A stretch of DNA of 44,357 nucleotides from Candidatus Omnitrophota bacterium (lineage in GTDB: Bacteria; Omnitrophota; Gorgyraeia; Gygaellales; Profunditerraquicolaceae): positions 1-44,357 of the forward strand of contig JAQUME010000003.1 in assembly GCA_028718245.1 (NCBI GenBank), written 5' to 3'. Under the pieces are notes generated by a model that saw only the letters and a program-made list of their open reading frames with translations, was not told where the DNA came from and did no database searches. Of the stretch, positions 19,707 through 44,357 are shown piece after piece. Position numbers and translations under genes: made by a program. Every line of letters begins with the position of its first letter. The stretch's first letter is position 1.

Positions 19707-19709
19707 GTT

Positions 19710-27317: not shown

Positions 27318-27332
27318 TAAGATGCGTTTAAA

Positions 27333-27463
27333 GGCGGCAGCGAAAAGCAATTCCGCTATGGAGGTAGCCGGATGCGCAAAGCCACGGGACGATGTTCGCC
27401 ACAATTTATGTTTCTTAATTTTCACGCTCAGGGTCAGGCGGGAACATTATCCGGGTTAGCTAA
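27333..27463 (+). ncRNA. GEMM/c-di-GMP-I-like riboswitch candidate (divergent)
   Basis: GCGAAAAGCAA..., hairpin TCCGCTA/TAGCcGGA, then gCGCAAAGCCACGGGaC, the hallmark GEMM segment; lies between promoter and terminator upstream of pilins. Confidence 0.55.
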
Positions 27464-27464
27464 A

Positions 27465-27507
27465 GCCGAAGAGTCTTTTAATGGACGTTAAGACTTCGGT
27501 TTTTTTG
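27465..27507 (+). terminator. Intrinsic terminator at the end of the leader (expression platform candidate)
   Basis: CCGAAGagTCTT...AAGACTTCGG followed by TTTTTTT. Confidence 0.8.
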
Positions 27508-27610
27508 TTTTTAGGCCGTTAAATAGTTTTAGAAAGTATTTATCAACTAGGCACACCGCGCTTATCGGATTTGCGCGGGTGTTGTCCTTACGGACAAGGA
27601 GGTGAGAAAA

Positions 27611-27784
27611 ATGTTAAGGAGCAGGAAAGCGCAGAGTACTCTTGAATACATCATCATCTTCACGGCGGTAGTAGGAGCGATACTCTTGGCAGCCAATACC
27701 ATCATTAAGCCAAAGATGAACAGTATGCTTGAGCACGTAGCCGGTGAAGCGGAGACCGCGGTCAAACACGTCAGTTTCCAATAA
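27611..27784 (+). CDS. Flp/TadE-like pilin (pilin 1)
   Basis: AAGGAGG RBS; MLRSRKAQSTLEYIIIFTAVVGAILLAANTIIKPKMNSML class III pilin-like N-terminus. Confidence 0.8.
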   Translation: MLRSRKAQSTLEYIIIFTAVVGAILLAANTIIKPKMNSMLEHVAGEAETAVKHVSFQ

Positions 27785-27811
27785 AGCGATCTTTTTAAGG
27801 AGGTGAGAAAA

Positions 27812-28150
27812 ATGTTAAGGCGCACAAAAGCACAAAGCACGGCAGAGTATGTGATCGTGCTGGGCCTGATAGTAGCGGCAGTTATAGCTATGCAGACCTA
27901 TGTTAAAAGGGGCTTTCAGGGCAGGATCAAGGACGCGGTAGATTATACCGGCCAGAGCGGACAAAGCGGAGAAGCCGTTTCTTTCACAACCAAGCAATAT
28001 GAACCCTATTATCTGGAATCCCAGTTTGCCAGCGAACGCAGCTCCACTGATACCGAAGAATTGGCAGAAGGCGGCTCGGTATCCAGGGCATCCGAAGAGA
28101 CAAGCACCAGGAGCGGCTCTCAGACGATATTGGAGCCGAAGACAGAATAA
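27812..28150 (+). CDS. Flp-like pilin with Ser/Thr-rich tail (pilin 2)
   Basis: AAGGAGG RBS; KAQSTAEYVIVLGLIVAAVIAMQTYVKRGFQGRIKDAVD. Confidence 0.8.
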   Translation: MLRRTKAQSTAEYVIVLGLIVAAVIAMQTYVKRGFQGRIKDAVDYTGQSGQSGEAVSFTTKQYEPYYLESQFASERSSTDTEELAEGGSVSRASEETSTRSGSQTILEPKTE

Positions 28151-28176
28151 AATATAATGAGGAGGAGGTGAGTTGA

Positions 28177-28497
28177 ATGTTTAATAAATTTAACCGGAAT
28201 AAGGCGCAGACAACCTTGGAGTACGCCATCTTGATCGGGGTGATCGTTGCCGGGCTTATCGCGATGCAGGTTTACCTGAAAAGAGGTTACCAGGGCAAAT
28301 TAAAGGAGAGCGCCGACAGCATGGGCCAGCAGTTCTCTCCGGGATATACCACAAGTAAATACACGATCACCAATACTTCTACGTCTACCGAGGAGCTTAA
28401 AGATAAGGTAACCGTATCTACGATCGGAAGCCAGGAGAGCCAAAAAACAGGCACGGAAGATGTCGCTGCTTCCGATAAAGAGTTCTGGTGGAAGTAA
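28177..28497 (+). CDS. Flp-like pilin with Ser/Thr-rich tail (pilin 3)
   Basis: GGAGGAGG RBS; KAQTTLEYAILIGVIVAGLIAMQVYLKRGYQGKLKESAD. Confidence 0.8.
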   Translation: MFNKFNRNKAQTTLEYAILIGVIVAGLIAMQVYLKRGYQGKLKESADSMGQQFSPGYTTSKYTITNTSTSTEELKDKVTVSTIGSQESQKTGTEDVAASDKEFWWK

Positions 28498-28529
28498 GAG
28501 CCGAGAGGGTAAATTTGGAGGTTTTGTAA

Positions 28530-29381
28530 ATGCCGATAAAAATATTCTTATTTTTAGTGGTTTTCGCCGGGGTCTTTTATCTTGCCAGCCTGGCATATCC
28601 TTTTTTTGAGGCGCTGATGGACCGCTGGCAGAGAAAGAGGATGGATAAAATTACCCCGAAACTGGACCGGATGTTCCTGGATATTCCTTTAGAGAAGCTG
28701 CTGCTGATCGATGTGCTTTCCCCCCTGGCCAGCGGGTTGCTGGTTTTTTTCATCAGCCGCAATATCTGGGCTGCTACGGCAGGGGCAGTTGTGGGGTTGG
28801 CTTTCCCTATCCTGATCATCAAACGGCTTGAGGCCATGCGCAGGCAAAAATTCGCCGCACAGCTTGTTGACGGGCTGATGATCTTATCCAGCTCTCTTAA
28901 GGCGGGATTAAGCCTCTTGCAGTCATTTGAGGAGTTGGTGCAGGAGATGCCCAATCCCATCAGCCAGGAGTTCGGCCTTGTCATCCGCCAGATGCAGATG
29001 GGCGTCTCTCTCGAGGAGGCGATAACCAAGCTGAAAGTGCGCATGCGGCTGGATGAGCTGGATATGGTCGTAACCGCGATGCTGGTGGCCAGGGAGACCG
29101 GCGGAGACCTTACGCAGACATTCTCCCGGGTAATCTACACTATCCAGGAGCGGAACAAGCTTATCGGCAGGGTCAAGGCGCTTTGCGTGCAGGCGAACAT
29201 GCAGGGGGTAATTATGTCGCTATTGCCCATTTTATTCGGGATATTCGTATATAAGGTTAATCCCGGTTTCTTCGATGTGTTCCTTAAGGATAATTTTGGA
29301 AGAGGGCTTATGCTTTACGCTATCATCTCAGAGATACTCGGCATTATTTTTATACGTAAATTGAGTAAGGTTGATATATAA
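28530..29381 (+). CDS. tadB: TadB-like pilus assembly membrane protein (T2SSF)
   Basis: LVDGLMILSSSLKAGLSLLQSFEELVQEMPNPISQEFGLVIRQMQMGVSLEEAI; multi-TM. Confidence 0.9.
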   Translation: MPIKIFLFLVVFAGVFYLASLAYPFFEALMDRWQRKRMDKITPKLDRMFLDIPLEKLLLIDVLSPLASGLLVFFISRNIWAATAGAVVGLAFPILIIKRLEAMRRQKFAAQLVDGLMILSSSLKAGLSLLQSFEELVQEMPNPISQEFGLVIRQMQMGVSLEEAITKLKVRMRLDELDMVVTAMLVARETGGDLTQTFSRVIYTIQERNKLIGRVKALCVQANMQGVIMSLLPILFGIFVYKVNPGFFDVFLKDNFGRGLMLYAIISEILGIIFIRKLSKVDI

Positions 29382-29394
29382 AAGGAGTATATAA

Positions 29395-30303
29395 ATGGAA
29401 TTAATCGTGGTGGTTTTACTTTTAGCGGTCAGCGTTTACCTCCTTATCCTGCAGTTCGGCTCCAAGGCATTCGGCTTGGAGAAGATGCGGCTGCCTGCCC
29501 AGGTATTTGACAGTAAAAAGGTAGAGATGGAGTTGAGCCAGGATAAGTATACGGTAAAGCCGGATAATACCTGGCTTCCCATTACTGCCAGGTTCAAAGA
29601 TTTTGAGAAGCGGATCCCCTTCTCCACCGAGGGGATAAGAAGGAGATTGATCAAGGCCGGCTTGCCGATGGGGGTATTGGAATTCCTGGCTTTTAAGGTA
29701 TTGGCGATTATTTTTGTCCCGGCTGTGGCTTTAATATTCCTTAGCGGTAATTTACCTAAGAATATGGTTTTTGCCGTTTCTCTGCTGGTGGGTTTCTTTA
29801 TCCCGGAGATGTGGCTGAATCAAAAGATAGGCAAGAGGCTGCACAGTATACGGCGCGACCTGCCCAACATAATTGACCTGTTGAACCTTTGCGTAAGCGG
29901 AGGCATGGACTTTATGCTGGCGGTAAACCGCGTGGTCAAGGATTTAAAACCCTGTGACCTGACCCGGGAACTGGGAGAGGTTTATCGTGAGACGCAGGTC
30001 GGTAAATCCAGGCGCGAGGCATTGAAGAATTTCGGCTGGCGGGTGGATATGCCTGAAGTGCATTCTTTCGTGCGCACGCTGATACAGGCCGACCGCATGG
30101 GCACGCCCATGTCGGAGGCATTGAATGTGCAGGCCGAGGAGATGAGAGTAAGGAGATTCCAGATGGGCGAGTCAATGGCATTGAAGGCGCCGATCAAGCT
30201 GCTCTTTCCCTTGTTTGCCTTCATTCTGCCGGTAGTTATGATCATTGTAGGAGGCCCGATAATCCTGCAGTTCTCGCGCGGGGGGATCAATTTCGGGTTC
30301 TAA
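29395..30303 (+). CDS. tadC: TadC-like pilus assembly membrane protein (T2SSF)
   Basis: IRRDLPNIIDLLNLCVSGGMDFMLAVNRVV...EVHSFVRTLIQADRMGTPMSEALNVQAEEMRVRRFQMGESMALKAPIKLLFPLFAFILPVVMIIV. Confidence 0.9.
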   Translation: MELIVVVLLLAVSVYLLILQFGSKAFGLEKMRLPAQVFDSKKVEMELSQDKYTVKPDNTWLPITARFKDFEKRIPFSTEGIRRRLIKAGLPMGVLEFLAFKVLAIIFVPAVALIFLSGNLPKNMVFAVSLLVGFFIPEMWLNQKIGKRLHSIRRDLPNIIDLLNLCVSGGMDFMLAVNRVVKDLKPCDLTRELGEVYRETQVGKSRREALKNFGWRVDMPEVHSFVRTLIQADRMGTPMSEALNVQAEEMRVRRFQMGESMALKAPIKLLFPLFAFILPVVMIIVGGPIILQFSRGGINFGF

Positions 30304-30307
30304 AGAG

Positions 30308-30457
30308 ATGAAAAGGCATATATCCGGACAAAGCGTCATAGAATATTTCGTGATCCTTACCTTGCTTATGGTATTGGTGGCCTCCTCCGGGTTTATAGAT
30401 ACAGTGCGCAACGCATTTTATGATTATTTCAACAGGGGTGTGGCGTATTTGAAATAA
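30308..30457 (+). CDS. Small pilin-like protein, 49 aa (pilin 4; absent from ORF track)
   Basis: ATG at 30308: MKRHISGQSVIEYFVILTLLMVLVASSGFIDTVRNAFYDYFNRGVAYLK*. Confidence 0.7.
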   Translation: MKRHISGQSVIEYFVILTLLMVLVASSGFIDTVRNAFYDYFNRGVAYLK

Positions 30458-30474
30458 AGAAGGGGGATAGGGGA

Positions 30475-30639
30475 ATGTTAAAGGTCCTTTATAACAGGCG
30501 GGCGCAGAATTTCCTGGAATATACTATGCTGGTAATAGTTATTGTTACGGCCTTATTGGCGATGCGCCAGTATATCCAGCGCTCCATGAACGCGCGCTTA
30601 AAGCAGATCCAGACGGAACTGAATGAATCAAAGAGGTAA
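30475..30639 (+). CDS. Small pilin-like protein, 54 aa (pilin 5; absent from ORF track)
   Basis: RBS-like agggggataggg; MLKVLYNRRAQNFLEYTMLVIVIVTALLAMRQYIQRSMNARLKQIQTELNESKR*. Confidence 0.7.
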   Translation: MLKVLYNRRAQNFLEYTMLVIVIVTALLAMRQYIQRSMNARLKQIQTELNESKR

Positions 30640-30649
30640 AGGGGTAAAG

Positions 30650-30988
30650 ATGAAGAATACCGCCCAGTCCTTAATAGAGTATGTGGTTCTTTTCAGCCTG
30701 ATAGTGGCTGCACTTTTCGGAATGCAGGTTTATCTTAAGCGGGGGGTCGCCGGCAAGATGAAGAGTTCAGCCGATGAACTAAGCGGCGGTTTTTTCTATT
30801 CTCCCGGGGCAACGCAAGCCACGACTACTATAGATACGACAACCGCGATAACAAGCAAATCATATGTTACAGATGTCGCTGGTTCCACCGATTACAAGGA
30901 AAGCATCATGGAAACCACATTAAAAAGCGACCGTACGACTGCCCGCGAAGAAAAGACCTTGCCTTTCAGCGCGGAGCCGCAGAGGTGA
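30650..30988 (+). CDS. Flp-like pilin (pilin 6)
   Basis: MKNTAQSLIEYVVLFSLIVAALFGMQVYLKRGVAGKMKSSADELSGG; RBS aggggtaaag. Confidence 0.78.
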   Translation: MKNTAQSLIEYVVLFSLIVAALFGMQVYLKRGVAGKMKSSADELSGGFFYSPGATQATTTIDTTTAITSKSYVTDVAGSTDYKESIMETTLKSDRTTAREEKTLPFSAEPQR

Positions 30989-30992
30989 TAAG

Positions 30993-31385
30993 ATGAAACG
31001 GGGAAGCTCGTTGATGGAGTATATGATAGTTCTGGGGATAATTTCCGCGGTCCTCTGGGGAATGAATGTTTATGTTAAGCGAGGGGTGCAGGGAAAGCTC
31101 AAAGACCTTACGGATTCATTTATAGGTAAGGAGCAGGAGACGGATATTTCGCCTACTGCCGAAACTGCCAGCAGCGCCAAGAGTGGATTTAGTTCAACCG
31201 CGGAGACCCAGGCATCCCTGGGCGGCGGCTGGAGTGTTTCAAGTTCGGACAAGATGGAGTATGAGGCGGAAAGCAAAATAACCGATACTGACGTGCCTTA
31301 TACATCAAGTGATCCTGTGCCTGCTGAAGAAGGGTATAGCGTTCCCGAACCGGCTAAGCCGCCGAAAGAAGGATCAGGCGGCTAA
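30993..31385 (+). CDS. Flp-like pilin with low-complexity acidic tail (pilin 7)
   Basis: MKRGSSLMEYMIVLGIISAVLWGMNVYVKRGVQGKLKDLTDSF. Confidence 0.78.
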   Translation: MKRGSSLMEYMIVLGIISAVLWGMNVYVKRGVQGKLKDLTDSFIGKEQETDISPTAETASSAKSGFSSTAETQASLGGGWSVSSSDKMEYEAESKITDTDVPYTSSDPVPAEEGYSVPEPAKPPKEGSGG

Positions 31386-31396
31386 AGAGGCAGGAG

Positions 31397-32170
31397 ATGA
31401 TTAAAATGATCTACACAAATAAGAAAGGACAGGCAGTAGCGGAGATGGCGATATTCGGCACCTTGATATTGCTTATCTTCGGAGTGCTGATCTCTTTCAT
31501 ACAACAGCTCAATGACCGGCAATATACGCAGATGGAGGCATTTCGCCGGGCATTGGAAAAGGCCAACTCCTACACTTCAGATGCTGATGACGGATCAGGG
31601 GCCTCTGTGCAGTACACCCTGGTGCAAAACAGACACCAGCTAAACCTCGGCGGCGGTTACCGGCAGGGCAGTAATGTTACTCAAACAGGTTCTGCCAATG
31701 TTTACTGGGCGATCCCTAAATCCCAAAAGGGCTCTTCGGCAGAGAGTTTGCTTGTATTCAAGATAAATGAAGATGAAGGGCAATTTGAATACAATGATTT
31801 TATTCCCGAAGCGCACAGAAGGATAGATGCCGATGGCGAGGAGAGGCCTACCTATTGGGTGCTGCAAACAGAAAATATGGCCACCGAATCGGATACGCTT
31901 TTCAGTGAAACGAATGTGAAAAGCGAAGATACTTTTGCGATCACCAATAAAAGGACTTCTAGGCTAAAGGATGATATTGTTACCGCTGTGCCGTACAAAA
32001 TAGTGGAAAAGAAAACCGGGGATAAGGACTACGAGAACACGGTAGAAGAGGGGATCCTGTATCAAGTGCGTCAGGGTGTCTATCTTGATCCGGAGGGCCA
32101 GTATAAATACAGCCAGGGTGCGGTAGGGAATGAAGTAACCAGGGAGAAGACATGGGTAACTCCATTTTAA
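31397..32170 (+). CDS. TadE-like minor pilin/pseudopilin with larger C-terminal domain
   Basis: KKGQAVAEMAIFGTLILLIFGVLISFIQQLNDRQYTQMEAFRRALEKA. Confidence 0.7.
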   Translation: MIKMIYTNKKGQAVAEMAIFGTLILLIFGVLISFIQQLNDRQYTQMEAFRRALEKANSYTSDADDGSGASVQYTLVQNRHQLNLGGGYRQGSNVTQTGSANVYWAIPKSQKGSSAESLLVFKINEDEGQFEYNDFIPEAHRRIDADGEERPTYWVLQTENMATESDTLFSETNVKSEDTFAITNKRTSRLKDDIVTAVPYKIVEKKTGDKDYENTVEEGILYQVRQGVYLDPEGQYKYSQGAVGNEVTREKTWVTPF

Positions 32171-32400
32171 AACGCGGCCAAAGCACGACCGAAATAGCAT
32201 TTGTTTTTGCGGGGATAGTGCTTTTGTTTGTGGCGATAATGCAGATATGGTTCTGGGGCAATAAGCAGATCGTGCAGCGCCAGAAAGCTTATAATGCCGG
32301 CAGGGTAACCGCCGGGACATCTTCGGATAGTTATACCCTGCAGTGGCCGGTTTACAAGCCGGAAGAACTTAAAGAGGAATCGGTTTTGAAAGGGCAGTAG
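32152..32400 (+). CDS. Small TadE/pilin-like protein
   Basis: LKRGQSTTEIAFVFAGIVLLFVAIMQIWFWGNKQIVQRQKAYNAGR; overlaps upstream gene. Confidence 0.7.
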   Translation: MGNSILKRGQSTTEIAFVFAGIVLLFVAIMQIWFWGNKQIVQRQKAYNAGRVTAGTSSDSYTLQWPVYKPEELKEESVLKGQ

Positions 32401-32425
32401 GGACTGTCCTTAAGGAAGGCGACAA

Positions 32426-33796
32426 ATGTTTACATACTTTCACGATCACAAAAATAAATACAACAAGGGCCAGCTTGCCCCCATCTATATCCTTATCCTG
32501 GTGATCGTGATCATTATGGCTATGGTCACGGTTAATTTATCCAAGGTAGCGATGGTCAAGACCGATACCTCAAACTCTGCCGATGCCGGGGCCATTGCTA
32601 CGGGCGCGATCATGGCAAATGCTTTTAACAGCGCGGCTGTGCAAAACAGCCAGATGATAACCACGTATTGGTCAGCCTATGCTTCGATAGCCGTTATGTT
32701 TTCATATGCTTTTGTTAAGCTGACTATGGCTTATACCTCTGCATCTTTTGCATTGGCTCGGGCAACATTTGCGTTGGGGTTGCAACCACCTTGTCAAACC
32801 TCCTGCGGAGCTTACGCGATTATGGAGGCAACCTACCTTCCTTTGACTTCAGCACTCTTAAATATAGCTTCGGTTATTACAACTATTTATGCTATCGGAA
32901 TCGCCATTCTTAGCGCCAGTGTGGTCCAGCATTATTATTATGCTTCTATCAGGAAGATGGCGATAAAAGGCAGAAGCTCTTCTATAAGGAATGGCCACGG
33001 GTTTGTTTTCTCCAACAGCGGCACAGGCCAAAAACTTAAGGCAGGAAGCCCTCCTGCCGATGCGGGGGATTCTTTGAAGAGGAACGGCTACAGGGACTCT
33101 TATGTTAATTTCCTGGATGGTATAGGAGATGACGAATATTATAATTATTCCTGGAAGGATGGGGAAGACAGGTCGCATTCCGTGGATTCAAGGGTACATA
33201 CTAATAAGGTAGAGGATTTTGAATTAACAGTGGCGGTTTTGCCCTCTTTTGCAGAGACAGCAGCTCTGGCTGCTGCCAAATATCTTCTTGGAACAGTCGT
33301 GACCAATTTAACTTTAGTGAAGGCTGACTATATAGCCGCGGAAGGTGAGTTTGCTTTGGCATGCGAGAATTTTCTATGTTGTAACCCCACTCCTGCAGGA
33401 GCTGCTTGTTGTATTGCCTGCGACGCTCTCGCATTAAAGGGGAAGGGGTGGTTAATCCCCGCCATAGCGAATAATTCTGCCGACCTTATGATAATGACGG
33501 GAGTCTTCGCTTTGCTAGTCGGCGCATTGGCAGGTTTATTGCCCGGCCCGACAATTACCGCCAGCGGGGAATGGGATGATGCCATGTTTTTTGACTGCTG
33601 GGTAAATGATATCAAGCATGACCACCTGGTGCGGGTTGATACAAAGCAAACTCATGCGGGAGGGGACCTCGGGCTTTGGAAGAGCAGTTACCCCGATACT
33701 GCCAGCTACGCGGTGGTTGATTTTTCGGGAAGAGGAACTATATTCCCTCCTAACCCAAGATATGGTTCAGACATAGTTGAGGTAGACAGTAACTAA
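32426..33796 (+). CDS. TadG-like protein
   Basis: NKGQLAPIYILILVIVIIMAMVTVNLSKVAMVKTDTSNSADAGAIATGAIMANAFN. Confidence 0.7.
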   Translation: MFTYFHDHKNKYNKGQLAPIYILILVIVIIMAMVTVNLSKVAMVKTDTSNSADAGAIATGAIMANAFNSAAVQNSQMITTYWSAYASIAVMFSYAFVKLTMAYTSASFALARATFALGLQPPCQTSCGAYAIMEATYLPLTSALLNIASVITTIYAIGIAILSASVVQHYYYASIRKMAIKGRSSSIRNGHGFVFSNSGTGQKLKAGSPPADAGDSLKRNGYRDSYVNFLDGIGDDEYYNYSWKDGEDRSHSVDSRVHTNKVEDFELTVAVLPSFAETAALAAAKYLLGTVVTNLTLVKADYIAAEGEFALACENFLCCNPTPAGAACCIACDALALKGKGWLIPAIANNSADLMIMTGVFALLVGALAGLLPGPTITASGEWDDAMFFDCWVNDIKHDHLVRVDTKQTHAGGDLGLWKSSYPDTASYAVVDFSGRGTIFPPNPRYGSDIVEVDSN

Positions 33797-33807
33797 GGAG
33801 GAGCAAA

Positions 33808-34710
33808 ATGTTTTTCAGGCTTAAAGTTGCGCAATTATTCGGCCTCATTCTTTTAGTGATGACCATAACCGCGCATCCTCTTTATTCTGCCTGGTGGGAT
33901 AGGAATACCATACCGCTTCCTTCGGGAACAGAGGAGGTATTCCAGGAGACAAGAAATATTTCGGGCACAGAGTTTGTGCTTAAGTATTATACCAATTCCC
34001 AGGATGCCAAAGTCATAAGTGATTTCTTCCGTTCAAAGCTTACTGCTTTGGATTGGAAGGAAAAAGAATTGTTAAAGGAAATGGCCCAGATACCCGGCTT
34101 AAAGGTTCCCGCCTCTGTAGAGGATATGCTGGCTTCGAATTCTATCTTTGAAAAAGGGGAGGAGACAGTTATGATAAACTTCCTTCCCCGGGGAGCGGTC
34201 CAGGACGGAAAGACCAGGTTTACTGTTGCACGGGGGAACACAGAGGCCCAAAAAAAGCCTGAGGAGGATGATTTTATACCCAGATTATCGGGCAAGCCCA
34301 AGCTTGATATTGCCCCGGTTTATCCTGGGGCAGCTTTGATCTCCCTGTCGGAGAATACCGGTTTTATGCGGGCAACCTATTTTTCAAAAGATGATATTGA
34401 TAAAGTAGGCGAGTTTTATAAGAGCAAAATGCTTAATTACGGCTGGTCCCTTGCAGAAGAGAAACCGCTTCAGAAGCTGGATTCAGGGGAGGTTGACCTC
34501 TCCAGCTTGTGCCCCGATTGCCCTAAGGATAAGAATATCCAGCAGGCAATCAAGCCTGTGGATATGGAGGTGCAAGAGCTTAATTTCTCCAACGAAGCGG
34601 GGGATGTATGTATTGTAGCCCTTGGAGTTACCGGCCCGAAAGAGGGGGTTGGAGACAAATTAAAGAATACAACCACTATTATGGTGCAATATGAAAAAGC
34701 CGGGAAATAG
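33808..34710 (+). CDS. Secreted protein of unknown function with two related domains
   Basis: Signal peptide LFGLILLVMTITAHPLYSA; repeated pattern VISDFFRSKLTALDWKEKE and KVGEFYKSKMLNYGWSLAEE. Confidence 0.65.
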   Translation: MFFRLKVAQLFGLILLVMTITAHPLYSAWWDRNTIPLPSGTEEVFQETRNISGTEFVLKYYTNSQDAKVISDFFRSKLTALDWKEKELLKEMAQIPGLKVPASVEDMLASNSIFEKGEETVMINFLPRGAVQDGKTRFTVARGNTEAQKKPEEDDFIPRLSGKPKLDIAPVYPGAALISLSENTGFMRATYFSKDDIDKVGEFYKSKMLNYGWSLAEEKPLQKLDSGEVDLSSLCPDCPKDKNIQQAIKPVDMEVQELNFSNEAGDVCIVALGVTGPKEGVGDKLKNTTTIMVQYEKAGK

Positions 34711-35590
34711 AGCGCAAACTTTTACTGAATACGCTATCCTTATAGCCGTAGTGGCGGCTGTCCTCTTTGGAATGAGGATATACATGGAGAGGGCTGTTCA
34801 GCAAAAATTCCGGGAGAGCGCGGATGTATTCGGCGAAGGGGAGCAATACGCCAAAGGGATTACCCAGGCTGCCTATAAAGATGATCCGGGCGCTCAACCG
34901 GTAACCCCTCCTTCCGGTAAGGATATCTGTCCTGGGGTTTTAAGTAAGGCAGAGGCCTTAGAGAATGAGATAGCGGATTTAAATGACCGCATAGCCTCAT
35001 TTGAGCAATCCAAGCGTGATTTAAATAAGTCGGCAGAGGATTTGAATACGCAGATCCCGGTATTAAGAGAACAGGCACGGCAGCTAAGGATACTTGCAGA
35101 CGGTTATGAGGCCCAGGCCGACGCAAAGGACGCCCAGGCTTTGGCTAAAAGGAACGAGGCAAAAGCTAAGAACGCCCAGGCGGATGGTAAGCAGAAAGAG
35201 GTTGATAACTACAAAAAGGATTTCCCGTTGTGTTTTACCTTTGGGTGCGGCACAAGCTGTGAAGAGGGGGACAATTGTTGCTGCGTGCTTAATGCCGTAG
35301 CAGCGTTAGAGGCTGAGATAGCCAGTTTGCGCAACGAAGCTGCTTTATTGAACGCCCAGGCAGCGGTATTGGAGGATGAAGCAAGAGCCCTGCATGCGAA
35401 AGCAGCCTCTTTGTACAAAGCAGCGGATGATGCCGACAGCGCAGCTAATGACCTGGTAGAAACACAGATCCCCAGCTTAGAAGACCAGGTTAAATCATTT
35501 GAAGAAGATATTGAAAAAGCCAAGAATGAGATTAAGCCAAAAGAGGAGCAAATAGAAAACTTTAAGAAGAATTATCCCAGTTGCTTCTAA
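34691..35590 (+). CDS. Pilin-like N-terminus fused to duplicated Cys-capped coiled coil
   Basis: NRAQTFTEYAILIAVVAAVLFGMRIYMERAVQQKFRESAD then long Ala/Glu/Lys/Asp heptad-like region; DNYKKDFPLCF and ENFKKNYPSCF repeats. Confidence 0.75.
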   Translation: MKKPGNRAQTFTEYAILIAVVAAVLFGMRIYMERAVQQKFRESADVFGEGEQYAKGITQAAYKDDPGAQPVTPPSGKDICPGVLSKAEALENEIADLNDRIASFEQSKRDLNKSAEDLNTQIPVLREQARQLRILADGYEAQADAKDAQALAKRNEAKAKNAQADGKQKEVDNYKKDFPLCFTFGCGTSCEEGDNCCCVLNAVAALEAEIASLRNEAALLNAQAAVLEDEARALHAKAASLYKAADDADSAANDLVETQIPSLEDQVKSFEEDIEKAKNEIKPKEEQIENFKKNYPSCF

Positions 35591-35601
35591 GGAGAAGAAA
35601 G

Positions 35602-36675
35602 ATGTTAAGTAAACCAAGAGGATTGACATTCAGGCTTATTTCAGCTTCCTTGATATTTTTCTTCGCGGTTTCTTTTACCTTTCCTAAAGAATCACTGGCT
35701 TATAGAAGCAGAGATGGCGGAGGGGAAATCGCGGAATTTGATTTCGGCAAATGGGCGTTAGGTACCGCGGCAGGCGTGGTCTCTTCTACTTTAGGCAGTG
35801 CTATTATTTCAGGGGTAGGAGGTTCTTTGGGTTGGACACCAGGCGGTAGTTTTATGGAGTCTCTCTCCAGCTTAAAAGGAGCTGATACCTGGGCAAGCAA
35901 TTTTGTAAACAGCACGGCGGTAGGCCAGGTGCAGAACGCGATAGGAATGATGGGTAACTATTATGGGTGGGACCCGGGTTCTACCATTTTTCTAAGCTCG
36001 GTAGCAGGAGGGGTTGTAGGAGGAGGGTTAGCTCCAGGACATTTTGGCAGCTCGCTTGGCAGCGGTGTAGGTGTTTCCCAGAGTTTCAACGGCTCGTTAA
36101 ACTGGCTTAAAGGTGTGGGCATAGGCCTTGTTGAGGGAAGTGTTGAAGGCGCCATACTTATGAGCGCGGCGGATAAAAAAGGTCGTATTGATCCCATAAT
36201 AGGTAATGTAGCGAATTTAACCGGAAGCCTTGTTACAGGCGGCCTGGTAGGGGGCCTCACGGGTCCTACAGGAGAATTCAGTTTTGGGAACATGGGAGAT
36301 TTTAATCTTGCTAAGGCAGGCCAGGAAGCCATGCGCGTCACATTAAGAAGTATCCCCTCAGCCGGGCTTAGCATGGGGGTCCAGTCCATTACCAGAAGCA
36401 TGGATAAACAGGATGCTTATATCATCAAAAATGCCTTTTCAGGGGCTTATTATATGATAAATGTCCCCACAGGCTATTTAGTGGATAGTAAGATTGTGCC
36501 CTCTGTGTTTGGGGAGAGGTCGCGGGTTCGTATTAAAAACACAGAATTACCATCACCGCTATTAAAAGAAACTTTAAATCCAAGTTCCAAGATTCCTTCA
36601 GTGTCAAATTATAGCCAGTCAAATCCACCAGGATTTTCTCTTGAGAAAAGAATTGAAGATATAAGCACTAGATAA
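35602..36675 (+). CDS. Secreted Gly-rich protein of unknown function
   Basis: AAGGAGAAG RBS before ATG 35602; signal-like LISASLIFFFAVSFTFPKESLA; GVVGGGLAPGHFGSSLGSGVGV and related Gly-rich stretches. Confidence 0.65.
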   Translation: MLSKPRGLTFRLISASLIFFFAVSFTFPKESLAYRSRDGGGEIAEFDFGKWALGTAAGVVSSTLGSAIISGVGGSLGWTPGGSFMESLSSLKGADTWASNFVNSTAVGQVQNAIGMMGNYYGWDPGSTIFLSSVAGGVVGGGLAPGHFGSSLGSGVGVSQSFNGSLNWLKGVGIGLVEGSVEGAILMSAADKKGRIDPIIGNVANLTGSLVTGGLVGGLTGPTGEFSFGNMGDFNLAKAGQEAMRVTLRSIPSAGLSMGVQSITRSMDKQDAYIIKNAFSGAYYMINVPTGYLVDSKIVPSVFGERSRVRIKNTELPSPLLKETLNPSSKIPSVSNYSQSNPPGFSLEKRIEDISTR

Positions 36676-36852: not shown

Positions 36853-36978
36853 AAGAGAAGAGGGCTTTTTGAAGTCCCTCTTTTAAGCTGTTTTTTGCTT
36901 CAATTCAAGGCCTATTCAGGCCTATTATATAATAAATATTATAATAAGAAAACGCTACCTTTTCAGACGGAAATTTCC

Positions 36979-37008
36979 TTGACAAGCACAAAAATTATGT
37001 GTTATACT
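36979..37008 (+). promoter_or_regulatory. Consensus promoter of riboswitch 2
   Basis: TTGACA - 18 bp - TATACT. Confidence 0.7.
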
Positions 37009-37024: not shown

Positions 37025-37125
37025 TAAGTAGCGAAAGGGTAAACCCCGAGTAATCGGGGGGCACAAAGCCACGGATCCGAAGATCAACTCAAAGTAACAA
37101 GATAAGGACAGCCGGGCTGCCGAAT
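37025..37125 (+). ncRNA. Cyclic-di-GMP-I (GEMM) riboswitch
   Basis: AGCGAAAGGGTAAACC, P2 CCCCGA-GTAA-TCGGGG (GNRA loop), GGGCACAAAGCCACGGATCC, GGACAGCCGGGCTGCCG. Confidence 0.88.
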
Positions 37126-37167
37126 ATCGGAAGGAAGCAGGATATTTGACAACTCGGTTTTTATTTA
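37121..37167 (+). terminator. Candidate expression platform/terminator of riboswitch 2
   Basis: CGAATATC/GATATTTG stem followed by actcggtttttattt. Confidence 0.45.
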
Positions 37168-37299
37168 ATATCTTATTAAGTAGTTTTAGAAACGTTTTAT
37201 TAAATTAAAACCACATGTCCTTAAACAACAGAACAAAGATCATCAAAGCAGCTGCTGGGGTAAGGGGAAAACTGTTTTTCGCCTTTTATACATTAGGTA

Positions 37300-40200
37300 A
37301 TGACAATGCATAAAAACCCTGAACCAAAAAACCAGGCAGAATCAAAACCAGGCCCGCAGGAGAAAACACGTTTTCAATCCAGCTTCAAGGCCTGGATCAG
37401 AATCGTAGCTTTCATAGTAGTTGCGGTCTTTCTTCCGGAGCAGGCAGCTCAAGCCGTAGAATATGATTGGCGCGTGCTTTGGAGCAAACCCGGAACACTC
37501 ACCTCATACTCCCCGAACTTAATAAAAGACCCGCGCCAGTTAGACATAGCAGTAGCAGTCAGGAACATCCTCAAAGACATTTCAGGCAAACCCGTAACCG
37601 CAATAAAGATCTCCCCCACTTTAACCATCAATTTAGAAAAGCCGCTAAACATCTCCAAGCAAAGGATAGAAGAGATCTACAATTGGCTGGCGGGAAGGCC
37701 CTGCGGCGCAAAGGCGCTTTATGATTTCTTAGCTTATAAAGGCGTTGCCGCGCAGGAGCAGGATATCGCGGTTATGGCCTTGACCACCGACATTTTAAGC
37801 GGGGTCCTTAAGCCGGAAGGCAACCCGAAGATCATCAAAAGCTCCCTTTATGCCTTATCCCGCGCCTCTGAATTCTTCGGCGCCAAGCTTTACCCGGTAA
37901 AATTTGATTTAAAGCAGGGCCTGACACCGAAAGGTGCTGTCCCCGCGTTACCCTTCATCGCTCATTTCAAAGCCGAACACTACATCCTGGTAACCCGCAT
38001 AACCGATGACAGGGTTTATTACGCGGATGAGCACAAAGAGGAGTTTCTGCCCAAGGATAAATTCTTAGATAAATTCAGCGGATACGCGCTGGTTTCCTCG
38101 GTCCCGGAGCAGGCGCAACTGCTCTCTGATAAAGAAGCGCAAGGAATAAAGGGCGCTAATGAATATGGCTATCAGGAAGATACGCCTGAATGGAATGGCG
38201 ATTGGGGTAATTATGACTATGGTTTTGATGACGGTTCTTATGAAGCAGCAATCGCGCAGGATCCTTATTATAACAGTGCAGCTTTCACGAATTACAACAT
38301 ACCGGATACCTATGGTTATAACTCTAACTTCAATCCTCCCTCTATTTCAAATTACTCCAATTACAATGTAAATTACAACGACGCGATAGCAATAGCCCAA
38401 AACGGAGGGACGATTTCGATTCCCACCCCAGTAGGCTCTACCGTCTTCTATAATGACTCAGGTATGGTTAAGATGGAGGTTTACAATGATGACCTGCGTA
38501 CAGTCAACGTAAGCCAGGTGACCGACAATTTAACGATCCCGCTGGCACAAGGAACCTGGGATAACAACAATAATTTTAGTATGCATGATATCGGGGCAGC
38601 AGGCGGGAATACTTTTGCCGCGTCAAATTTTCAAAATCCGCTTATGAACAATACCGTTAACTCAAATATAGCGTTTGATCCCAACGGCCCCACGATCGCA
38701 AGGGTTAAAAACGGGGAGACCATCGGCCTTTCCACTCCTACGGGATCTTTAGTGCTTTATCAGGATAATGGGATCACCAAGATGGAGAATTATAATGATG
38801 ACCTACACACAGTCAGTGTAAGCGCCGTGACCGACAACTTGACGATCCCGCAGGCCGGGAATATGGGAAATATTATTGAAGACGGAAGCAATAAGTGGGC
38901 ATGGAAAGTGGTTAATAAGGACATATATGTAGCCCAATTGGATGGAGGGGGCAACATCGGTGAGTTTAATCCTATGGGTAGAAGGACATTGTGGGGGCTT
39001 TTTTCGGGAGGGTTCTATCAGGATGTTTCCGGACCATTTAATCCGTCAATAGGCGATGAAGCTGCGCAAAAAATATTATCTACCGTATATGGTCCGAATG
39101 TTTCAAGCCGGCTTGATGATGTTGATTTCTCCGTAGGTATTTCAGGCCGTGAAGGGCAGGTTTATTTACACACATCCGGCGCGCCAAATCCCCATTATAC
39201 CGTTGTTTCCTCAAGTGATAAATTTGACGCGTTAAGTTTTGCCGTTAATAATCCTAATGGAGTCAGCGGAAGAGAATATTTCAATCCCGCAAGCGGCCAT
39301 ATTTTAGCAGAAACTATCGGAAGGGGTTTGTTTGATTCTCCAAATAGCACTTTAAGCGGTATTGCCCCCATGGGAGAGGCCATAGGGCAGTCGATGTATG
39401 GCCAGTTTACCACAACAATTGATTGGAATAACGGATATGTATCTTTTGCCGGCACAAAACCTGACGCGCTGTTGCAGGTAGTAAACGGCGCTCCGCAAAT
39501 GACTGCCGCGATAAATTCGGCGTGGAGCAGAGACAACAATGGGAAACTTTTAGAAATAGCCGGTCCTAATGGGACAAGCTTAAATAATGTCTTCTTAACT
39601 CCGGCAAAGGCATTCTTTGTTTCAGGTGGAGGCGGACCCGCAAAATCTTCTAAAGAGTTATTTGATGGGGTCTATAGTTTTGATGCCCAGAGTTTTAGGG
39701 GCCAGGGTCTGGATGCGATAGGCATTGATCCGTCGAGAGGTGGATCTTTTAATTTTATGGGCACCCGGCCGCACGCTACTTTAGGGGACTATGTGGAAAA
39801 TATCACAGGCTCTCCTACTCTTTACATGGTGCAAACAGATAGGGGGCTGAAAGAGCGCGTGCTTGATAACGCCCAATGGATGAAAATCAACAGAGGAGAC
39901 GGAAATTTAGTTATTGGCGCAGGAGCCAATCAGCCGGCATCACTTAGATTTGACGGTGTGGCGCAGGGAGAAACAATTAGCTTTAGAGAATCAGCGTCTT
40001 TTCTCGGAGGATATAAAGAAATTCTCCATAAAAATGTTTCACCCGTTCAAGAGTTAGTAGCTGACTATGGGCTGGGCAGAAGCTCAGCAAAGTTTACAGA
40101 CGGTTCGCATGACTTGATTGGAAGTGATGGAACGGTAAAGAGTTTTTCTTCCTACGGGGAATTAATAAACTTTTTAGATAACGGCCAGGTAGCGGCCCGT

Positions 40201-43200
40201 TCATTCTTTACAGAGAAGCCGGAAAGGGATGGCCCTAAAGATTCCGGTAAACAATCAGAACGGATATTAAACCCTGTTTTTGCAAACGCGCATATCAAGG
40301 TTGCAAACGCGAGAGGAGAAAAAGGAATATATTTTACTGCTACAGGCCTGGAATGGGGGTCTTTATTGAAATATGGCAGTACAGAATTTGAGCCGGAAAT
40401 AGGCCAAGGCACCCGTTTTTCCAGTATTAATCCAGATGAGAAAGTGAGGATAGGCAATAGTGATTGGCAGAATCTTTCCCAAAACCAGATCCGGGGAGGA
40501 GGTATTAGCCATGTCGATAATACTGGTTTTATTATTAACGAATCCGGTAAATCTCTGCCCATTATAAGAAACTACGAGGTAAACAATAAAATAGTGACTC
40601 TGGGAATTACAGATGGCGGCTCGAATTCTACAAGCAGCGCGCAAATCAACGGCATCTTAAATGGAAAAGTTGTTTCATTTGTTAGTGCCGCGGATCCCAA
40701 AAAAATTCAGTTAAGCGCTGATAAGTTAATATATGACGAAACAGGGGTGGTGATAGGGCGTCAACTTATAGATCCTCTGGTCCGCGAAAAAAGCAATATT
40801 AAGATTACAACCGGGACTCAAGCCCTGGATAAACTGTATTACAACGGCAATGCCTTGATGATCAGCGGAACCAACGGTTATATAGATGCTGTTGGGTTTA
40901 AGCCAGTAGAACGCAATCCAAATTCTCCTGCTTTGACGGAAAAAGAAGGCCCTGTAGAGTCAAATTTAAAGGTGACAAATATCCCGGATGGCTTGAGATT
41001 CAGTTCCATAGGACAAGACCCGACAGGGGCTCCTCTTGTTGCAGAATTTGAATTGGATTGGGCAAGAAGCTCATTACGCTCTACCTGGCAAGAAGCAGGG
41101 GCGCAGAACTGGATAACTGAACAAACCGCTATATTTGGAGAAACCTGGCAGCCGCACCCAGGCATAGAAACCGGACTTGTTTATTTTCAGGAATATCCGG
41201 GCAAAGATGATAAGGTTTCTGTTTTACCCGCGGGCGGCGCAGCCGAATTCACTACAGATCAATATCTAGAGGGGTATAGAATCAAGGGGACATATTCCGG
41301 AGCAAAGACATTAGACAGGACTGCTTTGGCCGAGAGATTAACAGGGGCGATTCAAACACAATTAGGGATATTTCAAAAAGAAGCAGCTAAGGCAAGCGCT
41401 AACGGCCAAGACCCGTTAGCTTCTTTAGAAAAGCTCCAGGCAGATAAATCAAGAGGCATCGTATTCCAAAAAGAGGAATTACAAGATCTTATAAAAGGCG
41501 ATAAAACCATAGCCAGTATCGCTGCCGCGGCTTTTGAAAGAGAGAATGCGGGAAGATTAGAGCAAGGTATCAGCCAGAATTTTAAAATGTCAGCCACAAT
41601 GAGTTTGGCAGCCGGTTTCTACCCGTGGGTAAGCAGGGATGGAAGCATATACGGTGACAGCGTTGACATAAGAAGCGGCGTGAGCCTTGAGGGAGTCAGC
41701 TCTGCCGATTCTACCGTGATCGTTACCACTCATGATGGACGTAAAATAGATCTATCCCAGTCCGGCATGCCGGTCAGCTACAGCAGCGGACAATTCAGGG
41801 TTAATCCTGCGGATGGGCTTAACTGGTTTTCTTTCCCGCTTAATACCGGCGGCGGCGAGGCGCCAAAACGCGAAGGAAATGTAACCGTAAAAGCCACTGA
41901 GTCCCGGTTAGTAGATAATTATTCTTCCTCCAACGGCATACCTGTAAATGCCAGCCTGCCGCGGTATATAGGCAATCCTTTGCTTTATGGCCAGGACAAG
42001 GTGATCAACCTAAATCTGGGAGCAGCGCAGCCGAATGTGATGAGTTTTAAGGGATATGATTTTGAAGGAAAGGTTCCTTTTTATGTCGGCGGGGAATTGG
42101 TAGGAGTTGAGGGCAGATTAACATTTTATGAGGATGGCGAGAAGAAAGGCCAGCCCAATTTAAGCCAAATCAAGAGCGTAGAATATCAATATAATCAGCC
42201 GGGATTTTTAATTGAAAGAAGAGAAGGCGCCAGCCCTGTTTTTATTCCTGCTGTGCATCTGGCAGGAAGCACTTATACAAACATGAAATTGGGGGATGAA
42301 AACCCCAGGTTTGTCCCTGCCGGAGCAAATCCCGATATAAACAACTATCTTAAGGTAAGCGAACAGGCCTTTTTCTTCAAAAACGGCTTACAAATAGCGG
42401 ATGTCATTAATAAAAATGTTTATGATGCAAATTCAGGCCTATTTAAAATAAGCATTGATACCAAAGGTGCCCCGATCGACTTTTTCAGCCGAAATGAAGT
42501 TCCGCCTACCCAGCGCCAGGAGCCTAACTTTGATCAGTTTATGAAAGAATCCATTATGACAGCACTGGGCGCACAAATGTTATCCTTCGAAGGCAGCAGG
42601 TTACAATTAGCGGATTTAGTGACTCCTTCGCTGTTAGCGAGCCGGGTAGATGAACAGTACCATACATCTATGAATATACCAAACGCCTCGCAATACCGTG
42701 TAAGCGGATATGATAAAGACGGCAGGGTTTTGGGCTTTGCTTATACCGGCAGCGGTAAACTTGGTTTTGGCGCCGGATTCGGCAACGACCTTATTCCTTT
42801 AGCAGGCACACCCGGTTCGCATTTTAAAGTTGACAGCGGAGAGTTCCAGGTATACAGGGATAAGCCATTTATTTATGCCGGGAAAGAAATTTCAGGAGGA
42901 CTGGAAGAGAATTTTATCGGCCAGCGTTCTTTAACTTATTCCGGCAGCCAGCCGTACAATGTATATATAGATCCTGAATATGGGACCTTTGCCAGCGCCG
43001 GAACGCGTTACAGGGAAGAGCGCACCTTCAATGGAGAAGACATTGGTAATAATAAAATTTTTACCGGGATAAGCGTGGTAGAAGGCAAGCATAAGACATA
43101 CTTCGAGAGAGAGAATACAAACTGGTTGAAGCATGGAATACGAAATGAAACAGGCCTTGATTCAAGGACCTCTGAACTGGTAAACAACGGGAAACCTACC

Positions 43201-44357
43201 CTTACGCCCTTTAGCCGTAAAGAATATATAAGCTTAGAAAGGGAGGGGAATAAGATATCTTCAGATAGTTTTCTTGAAGGGATTGTCCGTTTAATGCCCG
43301 AGAAAGGAAGAGTGGATTTCGTAAATTATGCCGTTGATCATCTGTATTTGTTCCAGAATAAATATCTGGTAGGCAAAGGCAATTACTGGATGCCTCATTC
43401 GACATTTGAGTCATATGGCGGCGGAAGCGGGAGTGAGGTTAAGGCAGGCCCCAGCGATGCGTTTCAACGTCCGAATCAAGCAGGAGGGGTTACCTATACC
43501 GGAGACCGGTTAGCTTTTAATATAGATTGGCAGGGCACATCATTATCGCTGCCAACAGCCTATTTTTGGGCGCCTGGTTCAACTATAAGGTTAATGGCCG
43601 GAGACAGATTTGTCAGCAACATTGAGATTAACGACGCCAAGGGTTTGATCACATTCCAAAAAGAATCAAGCATAGTTGATGTAAGAGGAGATTCAACCAT
43701 ATTTTATGCGCAGCAAACATCTCCGGACGGCAAAACAGTAACAGTGCCTTTTTATGAATCCGGGCACTGGTCGAATGGGACCTCAACAGATGGCGTTTAC
43801 TCCCAAAGTCCCGCCCCTAAAGGTAATCCCCAAGCCGACCTCATTAAATATATTTACCAGGGAGAAATGAGCGGCCCGCTTGCGGTTAAGTTTACTCAAG
43901 ATGCCGTGGCTTACGGGATGATACCTCAAGAGGAAAGTTTCCGCTATCAGGGCTATCAGAAGCTTGTGAATAAGACAACCTTTGTTCCCGACGCGGAGAA
44001 AGGGTTTATTACCGGAAAAAGCAGAATTGTGCCTGATCTTGAGCAAAATCCGAACTCTTTAACTTTAGAAGCCAAGATACGCGGCGGCGGTTTTCGCCAA
44101 GGATGGAATTATATATATGGTAAAGAAAATAGCATTGTGGGTTGGGGTCCCATTATCACAGACGGAAAGATTGGCAATGTGGGTCCCAAATCTCCGCTGG
44201 GCCTGGCTTTATTAACCCGAGGGCTGGAAATCTCAGGGGTTAGAAAAGGAAGCAGTGGAGAAGCCGATACCTATAAAGTAGACGCGCAGACATTAGCTTA
44301 TAATTTTGGGAATAAAGCTATAAATTTTGACAACCATCTTTTGCAGTTTAACGGGGT
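37300..44357 (+). CDS. Giant secreted/surface protein with N-terminal C39-peptidase-like domain; 3' end outside window (start 37300 or 37306)
   Basis: Frame 1 spot-checked open in many lines up to the window end; N-terminal TM/signal AWIRIVAFIVVAVFLPEQAAQA; RPCGAKALYDFLAYKG...EHYILVTRITDDRVYYADEH C39-like; no + strand ORF of track covers it because it lacks an in-window stop. Confidence 0.88.
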   Translation, partial: MTMHKNPEPKNQAESKPGPQEKTRFQSSFKAWIRIVAFIVVAVFLPEQAAQAVEYDWRVLWSKPGTLTSYSPNLIKDPRQLDIAVAVRNILKDISGKPVTAIKISPTLTINLEKPLNISKQRIEEIYNWLAGRPCGAKALYDFLAYKGVAAQEQDIAVMALTTDILSGVLKPEGNPKIIKSSLYALSRASEFFGAKLYPVKFDLKQGLTPKGAVPALPFIAHFKAEHYILVTRITDDRVYYADEHKEEFLPKDKFLDKFSGYALVSSVPEQAQLLSDKEAQGIKGANEYGYQEDTPEWNGDWGNYDYGFDDGSYEAAIAQDPYYNSAAFTNYNIPDTYGYNSNFNPPSISNYSNYNVNYNDAIAIAQNGGTISIPTPVGSTVFYNDSGMVKMEVYNDDLRTVNVSQVTDNLTIPLAQGTWDNNNNFSMHDIGAAGGNTFAASNFQNPLMNNTVNSNIAFDPNGPTIARVKNGETIGLSTPTGSLVLYQDNGITKMENYNDDLHTVSVSAVTDNLTIPQAGNMGNIIEDGSNKWAWKVVNKDIYVAQLDGGGNIGEFNPMGRRTLWGLFSGGFYQDVSGPFNPSIGDEAAQKILSTVYGPNVSSRLDDVDFSVGISGREGQVYLHTSGAPNPHYTVVSSSDKFDALSFAVNNPNGVSGREYFNPASGHILAETIGRGLFDSPNSTLSGIAPMGEAIGQSMYGQFTTTIDWNNGYVSFAGTKPDALLQVVNGAPQMTAAINSAWSRDNNGKLLEIAGPNGTSLNNVFLTPAKAFFVSGGGGPAKSSKELFDGVYSFDAQSFRGQGLDAIGIDPSRGGSFNFMGTRPHATLGDYVENITGSPTLYMVQTDRGLKERVLDNAQWMKINRGDGNLVIGAGANQPASLRFDGVAQGETISFRESASFLGGYKEILHKNVSPVQELVADYGLGRSSAKFTDGSHDLIGSDGTVKSFSSYGELINFLDNGQVAARSFFTEKPERDGPKDSGKQSERILNPVFANAHIKVANARGEKGIYFTATGLEWGSLLKYGSTEFEPEIGQGTRFSSINPDEKVRIGNSDWQNLSQNQIRGGGISHVDNTGFIINESGKSLPIIRNYEVNNKIVTLGITDGGSNSTSSAQINGILNGKVVSFVSAADPKKIQLSADKLIYDETGVVIGRQLIDPLVREKSNIKITTGTQALDKLYYNGNALMISGTNGYIDAVGFKPVERNPNSPALTEKEGPVESNLKVTNIPDGLRFSSIGQDPTGAPLVAEFELDWARSSLRSTWQEAGAQNWITEQTAIFGETWQPHPGIETGLVYFQEYPGKDDKVSVLPAGGAAEFTTDQYLEGYRIKGTYSGAKTLDRTALAERLTGAIQTQLGIFQKEAAKASANGQDPLASLEKLQADKSRGIVFQKEELQDLIKGDKTIASIAAAAFERENAGRLEQGISQNFKMSATMSLAAGFYPWVSRDGSIYGDSVDIRSGVSLEGVSSADSTVIVTTHDGRKIDLSQSGMPVSYSSGQFRVNPADGLNWFSFPLNTGGGEAPKREGNVTVKATESRLVDNYSSSNGIPVNASLPRYIGNPLLYGQDKVINLNLGAAQPNVMSFKGYDFEGKVPFYVGGELVGVEGRLTFYEDGEKKGQPNLSQIKSVEYQYNQPGFLIERREGASPVFIPAVHLAGSTYTNMKLGDENPRFVPAGANPDINNYLKVSEQAFFFKNGLQIADVINKNVYDANSGLFKISIDTKGAPIDFFSRNEVPPTQRQEPNFDQFMKESIMTALGAQMLSFEGSRLQLADLVTPSLLASRVDEQYHTSMNIPNASQYRVSGYDKDGRVLGFAYTGSGKLGFGAGFGNDLIPLAGTPGSHFKVDSGEFQVYRDKPFIYAGKEISGGLEENFIGQRSLTYSGSQPYNVYIDPEYGTFASAGTRYREERTFNGEDIGNNKIFTGISVVEGKHKTYFERENTNWLKHGIRNETGLDSRTSELVNNGKPTLTPFSRKEYISLEREGNKISSDSFLEGIVRLMPEKGRVDFVNYAVDHLYLFQNKYLVGKGNYWMPHSTFESYGGGSGSEVKAGPSDAFQRPNQAGGVTYTGDRLAFNIDWQGTSLSLPTAYFWAPGSTIRLMAGDRFVSNIEINDAKGLITFQKESSIVDVRGDSTIFYAQQTSPDGKTVTVPFYESGHWSNGTSTDGVYSQSPAPKGNPQADLIKYIYQGEMSGPLAVKFTQDAVAYGMIPQEESFRYQGYQKLVNKTTFVPDAEKGFITGKSRIVPDLEQNPNSLTLEAKIRGGGFRQGWNYIYGKENSIVGWGPIITDGKIGNVGPKSPLGLALLTRGLEISGVRKGSSGEADTYKVDAQTLAYNFGNKAINFDNHLLQFNG

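What the first reader, a model, noticed from the sequence alone, without database searches (positions are those of the whole stretch)
37025..37170. c-di-GMP-I riboswitch controlling the giant protein gene
A textbook GEMM core (GNRA-capped P2, GCACAAAGCCACGG, GGACAGCCGGGCTGCC) sits between a consensus promoter and the giant ORF. This predicts that synthesis of a very costly surface protein is gated by c-di-GMP.
Basis: partly seen in the sequence, partly recalled or inferred. Interest (0 to 1): 0.85.

Follow-up and report, generated by a model that had tools for sequence, protein, structure and literature searches.

The report
c-di-GMP switch before a giant gene
An uncultured Omnitrophota bacterium carries an RNA sensor for the signal molecule c-di-GMP directly in front of a gene from a family of enormous proteins (up to tens of thousands of amino acids), and most relatives carry the same arrangement, which offers the first testable idea of how these giant genes are switched on.

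Summary
RF01051 (c-di-GMP-I) matches window 37028-37124 (+) with 61.8 bits against a cut-off of 35, and the ligand-contacting letters are the canonical G20/A47/C92. A TTGACA-18-TATACT promoter lies upstream and a 2,352-aa frame, cut by the contig end, lies downstream.

The linkage is conserved. Of 67 homologues of the giant gene's N-terminus in the order, 51 have an RF01051 hit within 700 bp upstream on the same strand. The closest homologue (83% identity) heads a 14,792-aa frame; others reach 30,185 and 35,009 aa inside their contigs.

The aptamer's own 3' strand (37112-37119) is also the 5' arm of a covarying intrinsic terminator (37150-37162), and ligand-free folds of 24 of 25 leaders form it. 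This predicts an ON switch, as in Geobacter pilM. A conserved, translationally coupled leader peptide (37215-37313) follows.

The same window holds a second, divergent GEMM relative (27337-27463), missed by Rfam, before the Tad pilin operon.

"Surface protein" is not established: sampled giant frames carry sigma-70, kinase and GGDEF domains beside transmembrane segments. Ligand and direction of switching are inferred, not measured. The riboswitch class is known; its target is new in the library searched.

The parts
36948..36959 (+). GAAAACGCTACC, degenerate copy of the palindrome GAAARCGSTTTC found upstream of the pilin promoter; possible shared regulator site
   Evidence: direct sequence; exact palindrome in the window only at 27257-27268; weak, comparison by eye
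36979..37008 (+). sigma-70-type promoter TTGACA-18-TATACT, extended -10
   Evidence: matched at 10-12 of 12 in 24 of 25 homologous leaders
37028..37124 (+). c-di-GMP-I (GEMM-I) riboswitch aptamer
   Evidence: RF01051, 61.8 bits, cut-off 35, E 7.8e-10
37112..37119 (+). switching strand CCGGGCUG: 3' strand of aptamer helix P3 and also the 5' arm of the terminator
   Evidence: covariation over 24 leaders, 95.3% of cells paired, 3 pairs with changes on both sides, 0/500 shuffles reach the covariation score
37123..37146 (+). inner terminator stem AAUAUC/GAUAUU with loop
   Evidence: MFE; inner stem also visible in relatives
37150..37162 (+). terminator 3' arm CAACUCGG and U run
37215..37313 (+). 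leader peptide ORF MSLNNRTKIIKAAAGVRGKLFFAFYTLGNDNA, stop overlapping the second ATG (37306) of the giant ORF
   Evidence: conserved in L033 and L034 and across genera in two reading phases with matching spacing
37256..37267 (+). TGGGGTAAGGGG leader motif inside the leader peptide ORF
   Evidence: once in the 1.2-Mb genome; motif or near variant in most of 25 leaders
37300..44357 (+). 5' part of the giant gene: membrane/signal-like segment, C39-like domain, open to the contig end
   Evidence: homologues open for up to 57,756 codons
27257..27268 (+). palindrome GAAAACGCTTTC upstream of the pilin-operon promoter
   Evidence: one of 4 exact sites in the genome
27337..27463 (+). divergent GEMM-I relative (P2 loop UGGAGG, long P3) before the Tad pilin genes
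   Evidence: R1 model built from 12 relatives without the window: 95.4 bits, E 8.3e-29; Rfam does not see it
27466..27512 (+). intrinsic terminator after the pilin-operon aptamer
   Evidence: direct sequence
18783..36675 (+). Tad/Flp pilus locus (CpaB, secretin CpaC, CpaE/F fusion, Flp-like pilins, TadB, TadC, TadG-like) directly upstream of the switch
   Evidence: Pfam hits; synteny in relatives

Best explanation
This is a transcription-terminating c-di-GMP-I riboswitch that turns the giant gene ON when c-di-GMP is high. RNA polymerase starts a few bases after the -10 box and makes the aptamer. Without ligand, the aptamer's own 3' strand (CCGGGCUG, 37112-37119) pairs with CAACUCGG (37150-37157), a terminator forms and transcription stops before the gene (inferred). 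With c-di-GMP bound, that strand is held in helix P3, the terminator cannot form, and transcription runs on through a coupled 32-codon leader peptide into the giant ORF (inferred). Shown by computation: the aptamer, the overlapping covarying terminator, the conserved promoter, and the conserved position before giant genes. Inferred: ligand identity, direction, termination efficiency, role of the leader peptide. The likely logic is that attachment-stage c-di-GMP licenses a very expensive gene, possibly together with the neighbouring Tad pilus, which carries a GEMM relative of its own.
For: Aptamer: RF01051 61.8 bits. Linkage: 51 of 67 homologues of the N-terminus (48 of 61 genomes) have an RF01051 hit <=700 bp upstream on the same strand, most of them 195-259 bp from the protein match (from; one of the 51, G113, is a sub-threshold hit of 30.9 bits). 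The closest homologue (G010, 83%) heads a 14,792-codon frame that ends inside its contig; G125 (35,009) and G126 (30,185) likewise. Terminator: 8-bp helix between aptamer 3' strand and downstream arm, 95.3% paired over 24 leaders, 3 pairs with compensatory changes, covariation score reached by 0/500 shuffles and lost on sliding. Ligand-free minimum-energy folds of 24 of 25 leaders use this helix, 7 of 8 pairs in the window; blocking the 3' arm costs 7.4 kcal/mol in the window. The same topology is described for the ON switch pilM of G. metallireducens, where aptamer and terminator are mutually exclusive (PMC9262584). Signal supply: six GGDEF matches in this genome, those read having GGEEF motifs.
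Against: No binding or expression data exist. In the window one terminator pair (C-A) is broken. Ten homologues lack a hit upstream: for some the contig ends too soon, others are divergent (29-38% identity), and two genomes (G019, G020) have no RF01051 hit at all. In six more the hit is 1.1-12 kb away. The gene is truncated by the contig end, so its size here is not known. MFE comparisons ignore co-transcriptional kinetics.
Confidence: 0.8

Rival explanations
1. It is an OFF switch: c-di-GMP binding favours termination and silences the giant gene.
For: OFF c-di-GMP-I switches such as Cd1 exist (PMC9262584).
Against: In Cd1 aptamer and terminator can coexist. Here the terminator's 5' arm is the aptamer's own P3 3' strand, so the two exclude each other. 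No separate antiterminator arm was seen.
Confidence: 0.1
2. The aptamer senses another dinucleotide, such as 3',3'-cGAMP.
For: GEMM-Ib aptamers with A20 prefer cGAMP (PMC6456294); one GGDEF protein of this genome has GHLVGN in place of GHxxGD.
Against: The window aptamer has G20, A47 and C92, the c-di-GMP set (alignment). Other GGDEF proteins of the genome have the canonical D.
Confidence: 0.06
3. The riboswitch mainly serves the short leader ORF or a small RNA; the giant gene is expressed from elsewhere.
For: A conserved 32-codon ORF sits between switch and giant gene; short transcripts ending at the terminator could have a role of their own.
Against: In several genomes (L036, L041, L047, L048, L053, L058) the leader ORF is fused in frame to the giant ORF. 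The one other promoter-like site in between (37146-37174, 10 of 12) overlaps the terminator.
Confidence: 0.06

Closest known systems
c-di-GMP-I (GEMM-I) riboswitch, Rfam RF01051
   Same: Fold, core letters, size, GNRA-capped P2; transcription control before genes for pili and surface attachment
   Different: Controls a gene of the giant class; variable long P3; followed by a coupled leader peptide
pilM riboswitch of Geobacter metallireducens (cGAMP, ON switch; PMC9262584)
   Same: Terminator and aptamer use the same strand, so ligand gives read-through
   Different: pilM binds cGAMP; the window aptamer has G20
c-di-GMP riboswitches before adhesin/pilus genes in C. difficile (PMC6200980) and cbpA of B. 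thuringiensis (PMC7423583)
   Same: c-di-GMP gates surface or attachment genes by riboswitch
   Different: Targets there are ordinary-sized proteins; another phylum. These papers were seen as search results, not read in full
Giant ORFs of Omnitrophota (Seymour et al. 2023, PMC10066038; West-Roberts et al. 2023 preprint, cited in PMC12057145)
   Same: Same phylum; frames of tens of thousands of codons, with Tad complexes in the same genomes; peptides of one giant ORF rose 3-fold in attached cells
   Different: No riboswitch or c-di-GMP control was found in the library
c-di-GMP-I-GGC variant, Rfam RF03167
   Same: Overlapping model, 58.9 bits
   Different: The window has A at position 47 where the GGC consensus has G

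Membership tests
c-di-GMP-I riboswitch (RF01051) | Covariance-model score above the curated cut-off | tested here: met
   61.8 bits against 35
c-di-GMP-I riboswitch (RF01051) | Ligand-contacting letters G20, A47, C92 | tested here: met
   Read from the alignments: G, A, C
c-di-GMP-I riboswitch (RF01051) | GNRA tetraloop on P2 and a receptor in P3 | tested here: inconclusive
   GUAA loop present; the P3 receptor region is divergent
c-di-GMP-I riboswitch (RF01051) | Binds c-di-GMP and changes expression | not testable with these tools
   Needs in-line probing, ITC or a reporter
Transcriptional ON switch (pilM-like platform) | Intrinsic terminator whose 5' arm is an aptamer strand | tested here: met
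   Covariation and folds of 24 of 25 leaders
Transcriptional ON switch (pilM-like platform) | Ligand-dependent read-through | not testable with these tools
   Needs in-vitro transcription
c-di-GMP-I-GGC (RF03167) | Score above cut-off and G at position 47 | tested here: not met
   58.9 against 59; A at position 47
Omnitrophota giant gene | Single frame of many thousands of codons | tested here: inconclusive
   Window copy is cut by the contig end at 2,352 codons; closest homologue (83%) 14,792 codons, others to 57,756
Peptidase C39-like N-terminal domain | Pfam match and conserved Cys/His | tested here: met
   PF03412 30.7 bits over its cut-off of 22; PC and H near-invariant in 25 homologues. 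Activity not tested

The most novel reading that the evidence does not exclude
In this Omnitrophota group one regulatory module deploys contact machinery. A structurally altered GEMM class (P2 loop UGGAGG in place of GNRA, long P3, position 20 being G, A or C) controls the Tad pilus, and a canonical c-di-GMP ON switch with a coupled leader peptide controls the adjacent giant gene. Pilus and giant protein would thus respond to different thresholds or even different dinucleotides, in sequence.
Probability: 0.25. Interest if true: 0.82.

Novelty: new member of a known kind. Interest (0 to 1): 0.62.

Why it matters
Giant genes of Omnitrophota are among the longest known, and when and why a cell pays for them is an open question. 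A conserved c-di-GMP ON switch before them, next to Tad pilus genes with a GEMM relative of their own, ties the giant protein to the attachment programme. It can be tested with RNA made in vitro, although the organisms are not in culture. The second, divergent aptamer is a candidate structural variant of GEMM-I that Rfam's model mostly misses or scores just at its cut-off.

Tried and rejected
(1) GGC variant of the aptamer: rejected by A47 and the score. (2) TGGGGTAAGGGG as an ops-like loading site for a specialised NusG/RfaH that helps polymerase through a giant gene: every one of 13 genomes has a single NusG gene, so no paralogue supports it. (3) TGGGGTAAGGGG as a purely nucleotide-level element: it occurs in two reading phases, but spacing to the downstream (H/Y)IG codons changes with the phase so that the frame with the start codon carries both in most leaders; translation of a leader peptide fits better, though a combined RNA role is not excluded. 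(4) A GEMM in the window before the pilin operon by Rfam alone: nothing; found with a model of my own. (5) GAAAVCGSTTTC with one mismatch is not enriched over its control (28 and 25 against 49 and 51), so the shared-operator idea rests only on the exact sites. (6) No PDB relative of the C39-like domain by sequence. (8) No structure prediction was run; it would not bear on the riboswitch.

Full report
Check of the observation. Rfam's c-di-GMP-I model matches 37028-37124 on the + strand over its full length with 61.8 bits, cut-off 35, E 7.8e-10 for the window. The three letters that contact the ligand in the Vc2 structure (G20, A47, C92; numbering from my own knowledge, mapped through the alignments) are G, A and C. 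The related GGC model scores 58.9, just below its cut-off, and its marker position differs. The promoter at 36979-37008 matches 11 of 12 consensus positions. The window is the complete contig C3 of a 1.2-Mb, 92%-complete genome. Named relatives of the giant gene come from Omnitrophota MAGs. The only other RF01051 hit in this genome lies on a 3.7-kb contig upstream of a 482-codon frame; its terminator does not reuse the aptamer strand (sequence).

Linkage to giant genes. The first 280-300 residues of the ORF have homologues in 30 of 60 genomes drawn from the family and in 63 of 129 of the order. Of 67 homologues listed, 51 (48 of 61 genomes) have an RF01051 hit at most 700 bp upstream on the same strand, with distances clustered at 195-259 bp (places; one of them, in G113, is sub-threshold at 30.9 bits). 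Six more have one 1.1-12 kb upstream. In G059 and G087 an orthologue of window ORF 35581 lies between switch and giant gene. Ten have none; some of these contigs end too early and others are distant homologues. The frames behind these N-termini are giant: 14,792 codons in the closest homologue (G010, 83% identity), 35,009 in G125 and 30,185 in G126, all ending inside the contig by coordinate arithmetic, and 39,957 and 57,756 up to contig ends in G100 and G059. All ten 20-kb stretches sampled from such contigs were free of stops.

Platform. After the aptamer, the leaders have ...CCGGGUUG...CAAUCCGG-UUUUU or a variant of it. The 8-bp helix joins the aptamer's P3 3' strand (window 37112-37119) to 37150-37157. 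Over 24 aligned leaders (the 25th, L036, was left out for its long loop) 95.3% of cells pair, three pairs change on both sides, 0/500 shuffles reach the covariation score, and slid controls lose it. Ligand-free folds of 24 of 25 leaders form it. The aptamer and the terminator therefore exclude each other, which is the topology described for the ON switch pilM (PMC9262584). Hence the prediction that c-di-GMP turns the gene on. The genome has six GGDEF matches, those read being canonical except one GHLVGN, so a source of c-di-GMP probably exists.

Leader peptide. Between terminator and gene lies an ORF, 37215-37313, whose stop overlaps the second ATG of the giant ORF (ATGCATAA, 37306-37313). It carries TGGGGTAAGGGG, which occurs once in the genome; the motif or a near variant is in most of the 25 leaders. 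In relatives the motif is read in one of two phases, GVRG or (W/G)GKG, and the spacing to the downstream (H/Y)IG codons differs so that in most leaders the frame with a start codon holds both. In L036, L041, L047, L048, L053 and L058 the peptide is fused in frame to the giant protein. I infer a translated, coupled leader peptide; its function is unknown.

Neighbourhood. A Tad/Flp pilus locus fills 18783-36675, and the order Tad locus, GEMM, giant gene recurs in most fetched relatives; in a few (L105, L107, L108) the fetched stretch held no Tad match. Before the pilin genes, six of these and six further loci hold a 108-135-nt element with a GEMM core but with UGGAGG in place of the GNRA loop and a long P3. 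Its P2 shows compensatory changes. A covariance model from these 12, without the window, finds window 27337-27463 at 95.4 bits, E 8.3e-29, and scores above 70 bits in 23 of 60 genomes of the family. Position 20 is G in nine of the twelve, A in two, C in one, and in the window one G is missing there so that A takes its place. Its ligand is therefore open.

What the giant protein is. The N-terminus has a hydrophobic segment and a C39-like domain with near-invariant Cys and His. Sampled stretches of large homologues contain M50 peptidase, alpha/beta hydrolase, methyltransferase, sigma-70 regions 2 and 4, PAS and kinase domains, with many transmembrane-like segments. A 57,099-codon frame in G077, probably the continuation of its giant gene on another contig, holds a GGDEF domain. 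'Surface protein' is thus one possibility among several. Published work reports adhesion domains in some giant ORFs of the phylum and a 3-fold rise of peptides of one giant ORF in attached cells (PMC10066038).

Known or new. The switch is a member of a known class and, by its anatomy, should work like known ON switches. No paper in the library joins Omnitrophota or Omnitrophica with riboswitch, and the phylum survey does not mention c-di-GMP. The library lacks most subscription journals and all bioRxiv preprints. New here are the target class, its conservation, the coupled leader peptide and the divergent pilin-operon aptamer.

Noticed in passing
window 27337-27463 (+): Divergent GEMM-I relative before the Tad pilin operon, invisible to Rfam; P2 loop UGGAGG, long P3 with conserved GGGUC, missing G at position 20. 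Same class in about 23 of 60 genomes of the family.
   Followed up: yes
window 37215-37313: Conserved leader peptide (GVRGKLFF...IGN type) coupled to or fused with the giant ORF, in two reading phases.
   Followed up: partly
window 27257-27268 and 36948-36959: Palindrome GAAAACGCTTTC before the pilin promoter and a degenerate copy before the giant-gene promoter; similar boxes at the same place in relatives. Possible shared regulator.
   Followed up: partly
window 25596-27257: 553-aa ORF conserved between DUF192 and the pilin aptamer in most relatives fetched; only a weak HTH match. Candidate regulator.
   Followed up: no
G077:C6 (L169, L170): Open frame of 57,099 codons with a GGDEF domain (GGEEF), TPR repeats and a LuxR-type HTH; probably the rest of G077's giant gene.
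   Followed up: partly
L036, L038, L041, L044, L047, L049, L053, L058 upstream of the aptamer: A second copy of (A)AGCCACGG lies just before the aptamer; it could pair with the switching strand as a decoy.
   Followed up: no
L113, L117, L123, L124, L127: RF01051 hits with long inserted P2 or P3 stems before genes whose N-termini look like GH1 glycosidases (FPxxFxWGxATSxxQVEG, by eye).
   Followed up: no
G000:C80:1872-1951 (L003): Second RF01051 hit of this genome, before a 482-aa frame with BNR-like repeats (by eye); its terminator arm is separate from the aptamer.
   Followed up: partly
window 14615-15550 (-): Response regulator fused to a degenerate GGDEF domain (58.5 bits), in a row with a histidine kinase and a FIST protein.
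   Followed up: no
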